64,000 nt of DNA from Cloeon dipterum (lineage: Eukaryota; Arthropoda; Insecta; Ephemeroptera; Baetidae), in assembly GCF_949628265.1 (NCBI RefSeq), contig NC_088790.1, forward strand, positions 22,076,545 to 22,140,544, read 5' to 3'. The position numbers were made by a program, and so were the translations under genes. Shown here piece after piece: positions 45,001 through 51,000 of this stretch. Numbering within the stretch: the stretch's first letter is position 1; every line of letters starts with the position of its first letter. A model generated the notes under the pieces. The model made no database searches, was not told where the DNA came from, and saw only the letters and a program-made list of their open reading frames with translations.

Positions 45001-48000
45001 ATTGGATGGAGCTGGCAAGCGGGCGCTTTGTTCGCAGTGTCAAACCGAGATAAATATACAGATTAAAATTTGCCTTGCGGCCATTGGGAGAAAAGCACAT
45101 CTCCGTCTGTTGAATTGTAAAAAGCATATTGTACAAGGATTGGACGAGCAGACCGACGAACAGTGTCGAATCAGCACTTTTTATCCTTGGGTTACTTTGC
45201 GAATCACAGCCGGAGGGCAATTTGTTTTCTTGCATAGCGGAAAACAGCTTGTTTGGCCAAAGAGTTGCTGTTTGCGTGTTTTTGCTGGAGTTGGTGTGGA
45301 GAGATAAGAGCAAAAAAATGTACTTTCTGAACCGCAAAAATATAATGTACGCCCAAGTAACAGTGCAATAAAGCGCTTTGAATAATGTTTCCATTGAATT
45401 GTTTTGGTCGACTGATTTCCAAGCCCGAATTGCCAATACTATTTAATTATTGAGAGCAACAGCCACGAATTTAATTAAAAAGCAGCTCGCACGCTGTAAT
45501 GCTTGTGTTAATAGCAAACATCGAACTGAAAAGTGCCTCGATGGAATGGACGTTCAAAGGCAAAACCGCTAAACTTTTTTACGAGTGCCCTGCCTGGCTG
45601 CCTGCCTGACGACAGACGAAATACATCCAACTCTTTTTACGAATGTCAAATGTGACGCATTCCGATCGATTTGCGAGGCCTGCGTTTTGTTTGAGCAGCA
45701 GTAAAATTTTGATGGTGCGCCTTATCATTTTCATTCGCTAAATATTTGACAATACGTCCGTCAGCCCACCCGAGGGGCCGGGCGCTTGGCCAGAAGGGCC
45801 GACGTCAGCGGGATTTCGGGTCACGTTTCACTTTTGACGTTCGCCAATACGTCAAGTGCAACCCTTTTCCATCGAAAACGAAAACGCACGGCAAACGTCG
45901 GGCAGGGAGATTTGGTGCCTCGGGAATGTGAGAGGAATGCTCAGTGATAAGGACGGAAAAGGGATGGAATTTTAAAACACACTCTCTCTCCGCCTTTTTC
46001 CCACCGCCGACCAATTTAACTCCGGACGCCAACGCCATAAATTATTCATCGGCAAACACGATGGTTTGGAAAATCCCTTCATTGCACGTTATTCTTTGCT
46101 CCCAAGCATATAGAAGGCGGGAAACAGCAGATTGTGCTCAACGCGATCAGCACCTCGTGTCGCACATTTGCATACTTTGTGACAGGTGCTCTGCACCTAT
46201 GCCTACATTGTGTGGCGGAAAAGGGATGCTTCAATTGACCCAGAAAATTCAAATTCTCTATCTTCATATTTTTCAGCAAAATGTTCTGTCTTTGCACTCC
46301 TATAAAATAATTTTATCACAGGAGGAAAGTAGGGAAAATTACACTGCGAGGAGTAACAATACCTTTTGATTTACCATCTCTAATTGAAAATTATTTTTGA
46401 GAATCAATTTTTTTGTATGTATATATAGAAGATCAAAAATATTATATTGGTTGAAATTAAAAAAAAAAAGATTTGTTAAACTAAGTTCACATGTCATAAA
46501 AATTTTGGCCGTTCCTTGGTTTTTAAATTAAAAGAGGCATTAATTTTCACTTTTTCCTGAAATATCTCGCATTATTATCCAGTTTTATGCTCTCGACGAG
46601 GGTTTGGTATAGATAAAATTGTGTTTTGGAAAATGTGTTAGAGTTTTTTGTGAATATATGTTCGACGAAAACGAACATAATAAATTTTCTGCCCTATTTA
46701 AAAATGCCTCGCGGGGTCCAAACCAATTCCATTACTCGGAGGCAAAAAAGCGTCCGAATTTCCATCGAAAACATTCCAGTGCCGATTTTGTGCTAAAAGC
46801 ATTCGGAAAGAGCGGCAGATTGATTAGCCGCAGTCGCCGGAATTGAATCAGCGAGTGGGTGGGCACGGGGGAAAAAAGGGAAAAGTCCCAGGCGTGAGTG
46901 ATTTGTTGTGTTCGGAATTAACGATCTGACACGCAAACAAACAAAAAAAAACTCGGCGCGAATTTTCCAGCGTGCCCGCATTTGGAACGCTCATTACGGC
47001 TCAATCGGAACTCTTGGCTATTGATTGGATTGGGTGGTGTGACCGACTCGACGAAAACATTCTCATCAAAATAAACTAGTTGTTTGCTGCGCGGAGCTAT
47101 CAGAGGTGAAGATGCGCGAGAGGAAAGCGAAAATAATTCCCGTTTGGTATAAAAATTGGCTGAGTGCCGGTGGGAGAAGGAGGAAAGAAAAGCTCCTCCT
47201 CGCCTTTCTAAATGCTGCTCTCCTACAATTTTCAGATACTCACTTACTGTGGATAGTGTGTGAAATGTTGGGCGGAGATGGGAGTGCTGGGCATTTTGAC
47301 TATTCCTCCCGAGCTTTATAAAATGCTTTTAGTACCAAAAAGAAGACAGAACAAAGTACCATTTCCACTTTTTCCTCAATTCTGGGTCTGTTTTTACAGT
47401 GTCTGGCTAAATGAAACAATTTTTAATGTGAGGCTATGTAAATGGTATTTGATTATATACCTCTAACAACATAATTTATCAAAAATAGAGCACTGTGCGG
47501 TGTCAATTTTCATTACCATGGTAACCGCATTTTTTTAAATCAAAAACCACAACCGCACCACAACCGCATCGGTCTTGACCAAAACCGTAGTTGCGGTAAC
47601 CGCAAAATTACCGCAAAACCGCAATTTATTTAATGATTTAGAACAAAATAGTTTTCTTTTGGCAAGGCTTAAATTTAATTATTTCTGCGTGCAACTCCAT
47701 ATCACGGGTTTTAACCATCATAATTGCAAAAACTTTTCACCGTTAGACTCGTCTTGACCTCCCCTGAGCAGCTGAAGGGTTTAGGGGTTCTTACCCTCCA
47801 CCCCTATACTTTAAACTCTTCGGAAATGAACAACATTTTATAGCTCTGGATAATTTTATTAATTTACATTTTATTAAAAACATTTTTTTTTTAGTTTTGG
47901 TTGAATGGGCGGGGTGATAATTCAGTAGGAATTTAGGATGATTTTAAATGTTTTGAAGCCAAGTCGATGCAAATGGAAGCAGGTATGTTAATTTTTTTAT

Positions 48001-51000
48001 TAAAATTGAAGCAATTGAAAGGGGATGAGGGTAAGCTCCCCATAAACACTTGGGCTGTTAGTGGAGTTCAAGGCGAGTCTAACGGTAGGAAATTTTTGCA
48101 ATTCTGATTGTTGGAACCTGAGATTTGGAGGTTCAAAGAACCCAAAAAGTGGAAAAATGTCATTTATATTAAGTTATGAAATAACTATCAAGATATCCTA
48201 AAAATTACGCCATTCTGAAAAATTTGGCCCGGTTTTTAATTGCGGGCACACATTTAAGTGGCTCTTGATCCGATCAACTTGTCCACTAAAAGAAGCCCAT
48301 TTATTCCATTTATGATGCATCAATAACGTTGTAGTAGTTGATTGGCTTGATATTAGATTTAACACATAATTTATTCAAAGAAAGGGGATTTTTTTAAATT
48401 TTTGGTATATTATAAAAAGTGCCGTGCCCATTCCCAGAAATTACAACAACGTTAAACATATACCCGTTACGTGGGACGCCCTACCCGTCCCGCGCGACGC
48501 CCTACCCGTTACGCGTAACGCCCTCCCCGTTACGCGTAACGCCCTACCCGTTACGCGTAACGCCCTACCCGTTACGCGTAACGCCCTCCCCGTTACGCGT
48601 AACGCCCTACCCGTTACGCGTAACGCCCTCCCCGTTACGCGTAACGCCCTACCCGTTACGCGTAACGCCCTCCCCGTTACGCGTAACGCCCTCCCCGTTA
48701 CGCGTAACGCCCTACCCGTTACGCGTAACGGCCTACCCGTTACGCGTAACGCCCTACCCGTTACGCGTAACGCCCTACCCGTTACGCGTAACGCCCTCCC
48801 CGTTACGCGTAACGCCCTCCCCGTTACGCGTAACGCCCTCCCCGTTACGAGTAACGGCCTACCCGTTACGCGTAACGCCCTCCCCGTTACGCGTAACGGC
48901 CTACCCGTTACGCGTAACGCCCTCCCCGTTACGCGTAACGGCCTACCCGTTACGCGTAACGCCCTACCCGTTACGCGTAACGCCCTACCCGTTACGCGTA
49001 ACGCCCTACCCGTTACGCGTAACGCCCTACCCGTTACGCGTAACGCCCTACCCGTTACGCGTAACGCCCTACCCGTTACGCGTAACGCCCTACCCGTTAC
49101 GCGTAACGCCCTACCCGTTACGCGTAACGCCCTACCCGTTACGCGTAACGCCCTCCCCGTTACGCGTAACGCCCTACCCGTTACGCGTAACGCCCTACCC
49201 GTCCCGCGCGACGCCTACCCGTCCCGCAGGACGCCCTACCCGTTCCGCAGGACGCCCTGTCCGCGGGACGTCTTATCCGTGCTAAACAGTCGCATAATAA
49301 AAATGGTAAATTTTGTTTCTCAAGATTTGCGGTTTTTTGCGGTTCCACCGCAACCGCAAAAATGAAACCGCAACCGCAAAAATGAAACCGCAACCGCACC
49401 GCAACCGCAAAATTATAACCGCATCTGCGGTTGTGGTGGGCGGTTTGCGGTTTTTTAGTACCAAAACCGCAACCGCACAGTGCTCTAATCAAAAAGGAAT
49501 CAAATTTTTGAATCAACCTGACACGCTAGTTCTGTTCACCCTTTCTTGCTTGGAAACTTTAATACCAGAACATTTTTGATAAAACTCCAGTGTTTTGCTT
49601 TTCGAAAGTTTCGGCCAAACAACCTCATTCTAATCACAAATTAACAAGATTTGAAATTCATTCCTAGCATTTGAATATTTACCGATTTTATGCACATTTT
49701 TAATGAATTACCGCAGGGTGGGTCCAGAGAGCGTGAGATTAGTATTCAAAATTCTATGTCAAATTAAAGATCCAGCAGCCGTGGCAAACTTTTGCTGCCC
49801 AATTAAGGCTGGAGGCGCGCTCGTCGGTCTCAACTTGGCGGCGTGTCGTTGCCAAGCGAAACGAGTACTCAAAGTTCGCCATCAAACCAAGTTAAATTGG
49901 CTGACTGGCAAAAAATTTGGTGCGGCGAAAAAATTAATTACGCCGGCGCCTCGGCGTGTTAATCACCACCACTGTCGCAGACAAAGGGTCGCCTTAATTG
50001 CACGCGCCGCGACTGTGCAGCACTACCACACTTACTTGGCAAAAACTTTGGCCGCCACTTTATAAATAACAAGATTCATTTGCATAATGACGAGAACGGA
50101 AAAATGTGCGGCAGGAGTAGATTCGATTGAATTATGCAAATTGCGAAACACCCTCCTCGGCGCGGAGGTACGATTCTCCGCGAGGGTGAAAAATGAAAAG
50201 AAACAGGTGCAGTGGAGGTAATCATAAAGTCCGTCGCCACCGCCTGCTGCTTCCTTACAGCTTTAATTAATGCCGAGGAAAACATGCGATTTCACCATTT
50301 CCACTGGAAGGGTGCAATAAATCATGCTTGGCCCTCAAGGCAACAGGCGGAAGAACATGCTTGGCCACGCCTTCTCTCTTAGTCCTTCATGATTAAGTAA
50401 GTAAATTGATCGTTTTTTAAACTTGAGACCACCAGTTTCAATGAAATGAATATTTTTGGGTTTATTCCACTTCCTTCTCCCATATTACCGCTCTCAAATT
50501 TTAAATGTAAAATCCTATCTAATGGCATATCGCAGTCATCAGTGGCATACGCAAACCAAAAGAAGGATTAAATTTTATTCAACTCTTCTAATGTTGAGTA
50601 ATATTAATAAGGTCTCTTATGAACGTTTTTTAAGAGACGAAGCAAGTTTGTTTCATCTTGAGTCTAGAATTTTTCCCGGAAACAGACGCCATTAGTAAAA
50701 TCATGCAGTTGCAGAGCTGCATAATATTTTCCATTGAAGTACGTTGCCTGCGAGCCACTAAAATTCCCATTTTGTTTTTTCGTATTGTAGTTGAGTTCTA
50801 AGCGCGCTTTAAAGTTTGCAACTGGCTGACTAGTCTTTTTTGCTCATTGAAAGTCGTTCCTGGTGCACTTTCCGAGAGGCAATTCGCGAGTTCACAACTT
50901 TGCCTTTCGTGCGAGCCACTCGGTTTGATTAACAGCTATGGGGGAGTTTGCATTGCATTCACAAGAGCGTATTGTCGGCTCTGCAATTTCAATTGGGCTT

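What the first reader, a model, noticed from the sequence alone, without database searches (positions are those of the whole stretch)
48461..49270. Palindromic 21 bp minisatellite carried inside a transposon
About 38 tandem copies each hold the perfect palindrome GTTACGCGTAAC, so the array can form many short hairpins or cruciforms and contains a dense set of CpG and ACGCGT sites in AT-rich surroundings. Diverged end units keep approximate two-fold symmetry around C-G-C-G (GTCCCGCGCGAC, GTCCGCGGGAC), which hints that the symmetry itself is maintained, for example by a dimeric DNA-binding protein. A mobile element carrying such an array could seed satellites or binding-site platforms.
Basis: partly seen in the sequence, partly recalled or inferred. 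Interest (0 to 1): 0.75.

Follow-up and report, generated by a model that had tools for sequence, protein, structure and literature searches.

The report
Transposon carrying a palindromic tandem repeat
A non-coding jumping element in an animal genome carries a block of short mirror-symmetric repeats that occurs in many of its copies, appears to fill a 43-kilobase copy, and exists in two versions whose differences are themselves mirror-symmetric.

Summary
The array is real: window 48461-49270, 21-bp period, 32 of about 39 units with GTTACGCGTAAC. It lies inside a 2,002-bp non-autonomous hAT element (47486-49487; 16-bp TIRs; 8-bp duplication ATCAAAAA). A transposase-bearing relative with the same TIRs exists. 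The array is not unique: at least 23 hAT copies carry one, and one TIR- and duplication-bounded element spans 43,450 bp (14.8 kb of it read). The A unit also builds two composite satellite blocks (at least 53 kb and about 43 kb, sampled) and a few small arrays outside the family.

Copies carry alternative palindromes at the same site: A (GTTACGCGTAAC), B (GTCCCGCGGGAC), and forms with extra bases at the dyad (GTCCCGC-GTGACT-GCGGGAC; GTTACGCG-AGA-CGCGTAAC). A and B differ at four bases, exactly two complementary pairs; the linker is unchanged. Within each type, however, substitutions are not compensated, so symmetry is not policed unit by unit. Changed half-sites and spacing argue against one dimeric protein.

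Best reading: a palindromic minisatellite captured once by a hAT lineage, carried by it, and expanded in place; symmetry probably set by rare array-wide events such as template switching plus homogenisation. Repeats riding on transposons are known; switching palindromes are the unusual part.

The parts
47478..47485 (.). left copy of the 8-bp target-site duplication ATCAAAAA
47486..47501 (+). left terminal inverted repeat TAGAGCACTGTGCGGT
   Evidence: 76 genome hits with up to 1 mismatch versus 3 for the reversed control
47486..48460 (+). left body of the non-autonomous hAT element; first ~145 bp are shared with the transposase-bearing relative
47695..47805 (+). arm 1 of an imperfect inverted repeat inside the left body (about 79% to arm 2)
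   Evidence: query 209-319 matches 534-644 on the other strand
48020..48130 (-). arm 2 of that imperfect inverted repeat
48461..49270 (+). tandem array, about 39 units of 21 bp = CCCTACC + CGTTACGCGTAACG; diverged units at both ends
49271..49471 (+). right body with subterminal ACCGCAA/TTGCGGT motifs
49347..49398 (+). 2.6 copies of the 20-bp subterminal repeat ACCGCAACCGCAAAAATGAA
49472..49487 (-). right terminal inverted repeat
49488..49495 (.). right copy of the 8-bp target-site duplication ATCAAAAA

Best explanation
A palindromic minisatellite rides inside one lineage of non-autonomous hAT elements. SHOWN: the array sits at a fixed internal place, where arrayless relatives have about 220 bp of ordinary sequence; the 18 array-bearing copies that could be placed on a tree form one clade; copies have hAT-type 8-bp duplications and the same TIRs as a copy with a hAT transposase domain; array length differs from copy to copy, and one bounded copy spans 43 kb. 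INFERRED: the array was gained once, was moved by that transposase, and expands or contracts in place by slippage and unequal exchange. INFERRED, less sure: because the cores are self-complementary, each strand can fold back within or between units, which promotes expansion and lets a polymerase copy one arm from the other (template switching). Such rare events make new perfect palindromes (A from B or the reverse; longer stems with bases added at the dyad). Homogenisation then spreads one of them through an array, while point mutations between these events are left uncorrected.
For: hAT rider: TIRs and TSDs; PF05699 domain inside a TIR- and TSD-bounded 4,234-bp copy; ends shared with it at 92% and 85%; array-bearing clade 100/100; arrayless state. 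Expansion: arrays read in full from about 0.4 to 6.8 kb, with higher-order periods of 50, 63, 79, 108 and 279 bp; a 43,450-bp element with CTTTAGAG on both sides, B array at both ends and at three inner spots. Symmetry between types: A and B differ only at unit positions 4, 5, 10 and 11, two complementary pairs, linker identical (chance 0.0004 for random placement, post hoc). The 20-base (703 units) and 19-base (84 units) classes keep both arms in their main forms and lengthen the stem to 7-8 bp. Half-changed cores GTCCCGCG|TAAC occur in 6 array contexts, 17 copies. Left bodies of array-bearing copies differ from the window copy by 0-8.5% while A and B cores differ at 4 of 12 bases, in two adjacent base pairs, as expected from few multi-base events. 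Template switching between inverted-repeat arms is published (PMC8794818, passages read).
Against: A12, the commonest core, hardly folds alone (MFE 0 kcal/mol as DNA and as RNA); its foldback needs pairing between neighbouring units. Some amplified cores are imperfect (GTCTCGCGGGAC 153 copies, GTTATGCGTAAC 77, ATCCCGCGTGACTGCAGGAC 60), so perfection is not required for amplification. No within-type compensation. The A/B switch may be a single event, and A could have entered from a satellite rather than arisen inside the element. No intermediate was caught with one arm freshly copied from the other.
Confidence: 0.58

Rival explanations
1. Ordinary slippage minisatellite: the seed unit happened to be palindromic, and symmetry has no part in its expansion or evolution. 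A and B are two variants of an old mixed array that were amplified by chance.
For: No compensated substitutions beyond chance within A12, B12, A19 or B20. Imperfect cores amplify too. End units are a mixed, imperfect set, some shared by A and B copies (GTCCCGCGCGAC, ATCACGCGCGAC).
Against: Four A/B differences falling in exactly two complementary pairs, with none in the linker, and the two amplified length variants both growing at the dyad with arms intact, are hard to credit to chance; 1,691 of 2,603 cores have all six pairs.
Confidence: 0.27
2. Binding-site platform: the palindrome is bound by a dimeric protein (host factor or transposase) and selection keeps both half-sites.
For: Perfect two-fold symmetry in most units (1,691 of 2,603); dense arrays in many copies. 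The A core resembles a bZIP half-site pair (recalled, not tested).
Against: A and B half-sites differ at 2 of 6 bases, and the 19/20-base cores change the half-site distance by 7-8 bp. The transposase-bearing copy L056 and some other relatives have no array. No within-type compensation.
Confidence: 0.08
3. Selected hairpin: the array acts as folded RNA or single-stranded DNA, and selection keeps stems but not loops.
For: 19- and 20-base cores fold at z = -4.9 and -4.3 as DNA. In 20-base cores loop sites carry more substitutions than arm sites (64 over 6 sites versus 58 over 14). The A/B switch keeps pairing.
Against: A12 alone has no stable fold. Arm substitutions are not compensated. Counts are not independent events, because arrays copy their variants.
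Confidence: 0.07

Closest known systems
hAT superfamily DNA transposons, non-autonomous members
   Same: 8-bp duplications, short TIRs beginning TAGAG, and a transposase-bearing relative with a Dimer_Tnp_hAT domain
   Different: internal part is largely a palindromic array; one bounded copy spans 43 kb
Tandem repeats riding on MITEs (Xenopus MITE repeats, Hikosaka and Kawahara; lepidopteran MITEs with GTCY microsatellites, Coates et al.; both seen only as references in PMC9659126)
   Same: by their titles, a short repeat array is dispersed by a non-autonomous DNA transposon
   Different: palindromic unit with alternative symmetric versions and dyad insertions; not described in the passages I saw
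Tetris / TIR-220 of Drosophila virilis (PMC4079207; outline with abstract, and section 20 read)
   Same: repeats of a non-autonomous DNA transposon also occur as kilobase satellite arrays
   Different: Tetris is a foldback-like element with ~220-bp repeats inside its TIRs; here one central array of 21-bp units
Atlantic cod gadMor-hAT-1784 hAT-derived MITE with inverted repeats in tandem (PMC12368964, passages read)
   Same: hAT-derived non-autonomous element with internal inverted repeats in tandem
   Different: 167-169-bp units there; 21-bp units with a perfect palindrome and A/B switching here
Template-switch maintenance of hairpin stems (PMC8794818, passages read)
   Same: multi-base compensatory change in a stem by one event, proposed without stepwise selection
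   Different: described there for RNA genes; here it is only inferred, in a tandem array

Membership tests
hAT superfamily | 8-bp target-site duplication | tested here: met
   11 of 15 array-bearing copies read at both ends have a perfect 8-bp duplication, 1 has one mismatch, 3 do not match
hAT superfamily | short TIRs of the YARNG type (motif recalled) | tested here: met
   TAGAGCACTGTGCGGT at both ends
hAT superfamily | related element coding for a hAT transposase | tested here: met
   PF05699, E 2.4e-13, inside C5:29276554-29280787 with the same TIRs and duplication GTGGAAAC; sequence match to Hermes weak, E 0.01
hAT superfamily | catalytic DDE residues and demonstrated transposition | not testable with these tools
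   transposase is in several reading-frame pieces; not reconstructed, no assay
MITE | small size (under about 800 bp, recalled), non-coding, TIRs | tested here: not met
   window copy is 2,002 bp; the array-bearing copies read at both ends span 755 to 43,450 bp; so called a non-autonomous hAT element
Foldback element (Tetris-like) | long terminal inverted repeats containing tandem repeats | tested here: not met
   exact TIRs 16 bp; the array is single and central; a short subterminal 20-bp repeat (2.6 copies) lies near the right end only
Template-switch-maintained hairpin | several complementary changes in a stem in one event | tested here: inconclusive
   A/B double-pair switch and half-changed cores fit; no polarised single event observed, no within-type excess
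Dimeric protein binding-site array | conserved half-site sequence and spacing | tested here: not met
   half-sites differ between A and B; spacing differs by 7-8 bp in 19/20-base cores

The most novel reading that the evidence does not exclude
A self-perfecting satellite: palindromic units act as attractors, because one arm can template the other during replication. New arm sequences are therefore turned at once into new perfect palindromes and spread through the array. A hAT transposon carries this system around the genome and seeds satellites with it, so symmetry persists while sequence turns over and no protein or RNA function is needed.
Probability: 0.22. Interest if true: 0.72.

Novelty: new variant of a known kind. 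Interest (0 to 1): 0.46.

Why it matters
Satellites seeded by transposons are known, but why some satellite units keep dyad symmetry is debated (for example at centromeres; only search listings seen). This family offers many copies of one array, on closely similar carriers, with alternative perfect palindromes and dyad insertions. That makes it possible to test whether symmetry is kept by selection, by a bound protein, or by the way hairpin-prone DNA is copied.

Tried and rejected
Coding repeat: 21 is a multiple of 3, so reading frames run through the array (331 and 289 aa on +, 257 aa on -). The 19- and 20-base cores give 28- and 29-bp units, which would break such frames in other copies; rejected by inference. 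Within-type compensatory selection: tested and not found. Indel placement by wraparound alignment: abandoned, because it read the 29-bp unit as two 21-bp units with a deletion; that reading cannot be excluded, and it also leaves both arms intact. Right-end cores were mis-registered, so its right-side and combined counts are not used; repeated. The C1:33.85-33.88 Mb stretch was spot-checked as a possible second giant array: five 401-base spots had none. Of six transposase reading-frame pieces, only the C-terminal one gave a Pfam family over its cut-off. Literature: searches list no paper whose title or abstract start describes a palindromic 21-bp hAT-borne array; (six phrases for palindromic repeats) returned 9 papers, by title none about such an array. 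That is absence from these searches only. The species was not identified.

Full report
What is there. The array was confirmed by Tandem Repeats Finder at 48461-49248 with period 21 and 37.6 copies; the diverged last unit ends near 49270. Thirty-two of about 39 units hold GTTACGCGTAAC exactly. The symmetric part is 14 bp, CGTTACGCGTAACG (373 of 375 cores counted in nine A-type copies), so a unit is a 14-bp palindrome plus CCCTACC. Seven units differ from the perfect core, six of them at the ends. Genome-wide the 12-mer occurs 2,588 times against 6 for the reversed control.

The carrier. The array lies in an element of 2,002 bp (47486-49487) with TIRs TAGAGCACTGTGCGGT and the 8-bp duplication ATCAAAAA. 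The TIR occurs 76 times with at most one mismatch, against 3 for the control. Fifteen array-bearing copies were read at both ends: 11 have a perfect 8-bp duplication, one has a single mismatch (L055), and three (L043, L044, L051) do not match in register. A copy at C5:29276554-29280787 has the same TIRs and a perfect duplication, has no array, and holds a Dimer_Tnp_hAT domain (E 2.4e-13). It is one of 13 PF05699 matches in the genome. A second, near a TIR on C4, is 92% alike over 1,137 bp. The window element shares its first ~145 bp (92%) and about 200 bp at its right end (85%) with the C5 copy. It is therefore a non-autonomous hAT element. Catalytic residues and mobility were not tested.

One gain of the array. 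Arrayless relatives (L021, L023, L025, L027 and L032 seen clearly) have ordinary sequence where the array stands; it measures 218-222 bp in the three (L025, L027, L032) that the script could measure, of five tried. A tree of left bodies puts 18 array-bearing copies in one clade (100/100) apart from 3 arrayless ones, with A and B labels clustered (2 changes each). I chose those three arrayless copies from about a dozen fetched. L038, L043, L046 and L055 were left out because their left body is missing or short, and L075 was fetched later and not used. Left bodies of array-bearing copies match the window copy at 91.5-100%.

Not only here, and not only in this element. I count 23 hAT copies with an array among the loci examined; others were not fetched (for example beside the TIR at C4:27634100, where one search shows a B core). 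The longest runs from C1:7497544 to 7540993 (43,450 bp) with CTTTAGAG on both sides. 14,754 bp of it was read (both ends and three inner spots), and inside the element's ends this is B-type array apart from a few odd end units. Outside the family, two composite satellite blocks repeat a ~230-bp spacer alternating with runs of A units: C2 from about 31,488,775 to beyond 31,542,000, and C4 about 5,533,888-5,577,025, both sampled, not read through. In one search only 40 of 188 candidates were scored, and all 48 listed spacer matches lay in these blocks; one further spacer copy was later met at C4:28646877-28647092 (93% over 217 bp). Small arrays with no hAT body in the stretch fetched lie at C1:1193303, C1:37656256, C2:11761430-11763430 and C4:28647466. 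Exact 12-mers found: 579 in 17 hAT loci, about 33 in small arrays (slight double count), 389 in 22.3 kb of satellite sample. The blocks thus plausibly hold most of the remaining ~1,600, but this was not counted.

Alternative palindromes. In the same place, copies carry A (GTTACGCGTAAC), B (GTCCCGCGGGAC), a 20-base core GTCCCGC-GTGACT-GCGGGAC, or a 19-base core GTTACGCG-AGA-CGCGTAAC. Core lengths over all contexts: 12 (1,816), 20 (703), 19 (84), and 62 others, many of them two units with a diverged linker. A and B differ at four of 21 positions, forming exactly two complementary pairs; random placement gives 0.0035, or 0.0004 with complementarity required. This is a post hoc figure for one comparison. 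Cores of mixed type (B left arm, A right arm) number 25 copies. Across 77 distinct 12-base cores, 348 of 462 pairs are Watson-Crick against 313 after shuffling right arms (0 of 5,000 shuffles as high).

Results against symmetry being maintained. That excess comes from the A/B split. Within A12-like, B12-like and B20-like cores, shuffles reach the observed value in 4,670, 4,840 and 4,113 of 5,000. Of 64 pairs of arm substitutions, 5 are at paired positions (5.8 expected) and 2 are complementary. For these within-type counts the script dropped consensus cores, cores more than three changes from any type, and cores equally near two types, which sets the half-A half-B cores aside. Several imperfect cores are highly amplified. 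Of 15 left-end cores of array-bearing copies (16 rows, less L026, an arrayless copy), two 12-base cores are perfect and two more begin 20-base cores with intact stems. Of 17 right ends (21 rows, less 4 arrayless copies), two 12-base cores are perfect. The commonest end core, GTCCCGCGCGAC, has 5 of 6 pairs. Ends are homogenised least (general knowledge), so either the ancestral units were imperfect or the ends have decayed; this was not resolved.

Mechanism. The facts fit symmetry that changes in rare, multi-base, array-wide steps rather than by unit-by-unit selection. Template switching between arms can do this in one event (PMC8794818; passages), and homogenisation would spread the result. 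Self-complementary units can also pair with neighbours: three A units fold at z = -5.2 as DNA and -4.6 as RNA, although a lone A12 does not fold. The 20- and 19-base cores fold strongly alone (z -4.3 and -4.9 as DNA). Loop sites of 20-base cores vary more than arm sites (64 over 6 versus 58 over 14), but variants are shared by descent within arrays, so this is suggestive only. A dimeric protein would have to accept two half-site sequences and three spacings.

Place among known things. Tandem repeats carried by non-autonomous DNA transposons and satellites grown from them are known: Tetris (PMC4079207, outline with abstract, and section 20), cod hAT-derived MITE (PMC12368964, passages), and the review PMC9659126 (passages; its reference list names Xenopus and lepidopteran cases). 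Coral CMITEs form tandem arrays of the element (PMC2872659, outline with abstract). The symmetric switch and dyad insertions are what I did not find in searches. I rate it a new variant of a known kind.

Noticed in passing
window 48370-49365 (+), 48416-49285 (+), 48441-49214 (-): Open frames of 331, 289 and 257 aa run through the array only because 21 is a multiple of 3; not taken as coding.
   Followed up: partly
L057, L058, L064 (C2:31.488-31.542 Mb) and L059, L060, L065 (C4:5.534-5.577 Mb): Composite satellites of a ~230-bp spacer plus runs of the A unit. The C4 block ends about 300 bp from an exon resembling a 7tm chemosensory receptor (PF08395, E 3.6e-4, below its cut-off), so it lies near a gene and hints at an arthropod host.
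   Followed up: partly
L083 1078-1293 and L074 1-93 (C4:28646877-28647092): A dispersed copy of the satellite spacer beside exon-like sequence, with a 2-unit array about 400 bp further on: a possible source locus of the composite satellite.
   Followed up: partly
L055 (C5:23779600-23785000) and L001 1569-1702: A second, different ~134-bp spacer recurs among A units inside one hAT copy and occurs once between two mini-arrays at C1:1193303.
   Followed up: partly
L072 (C1:37655900-37656700): An array of 15 parsed cores without hAT ends, in an intron-like position beside a conserved-looking exon; two cores carry 3 extra bases at the dyad.
   Followed up: no
all arrays parsed: Frequent substitutions look like CpG transitions (C5 in A cores; G1 and G16 in 20-base cores), uneven between strands in A cores (22 records at C5, 3 at G8; not independent events).
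   Followed up: no
window 4200-33379: Exon-like frames match Transket_pyr, Aminotran_1_2, ERG4_ERG24 (two), Sulfate_transp and DUF676 (6 of 8 window frames tested): ordinary genes.
   Followed up: partly
C4:31.66-31.77 Mb (L020, L024, L034): A cluster of diverged arrayless copies of the left body in which a GC-rich stretch (GGGCTGCGGGCTGCTCGGCGCGC) follows shortly after the point where the array would start.
   Followed up: no
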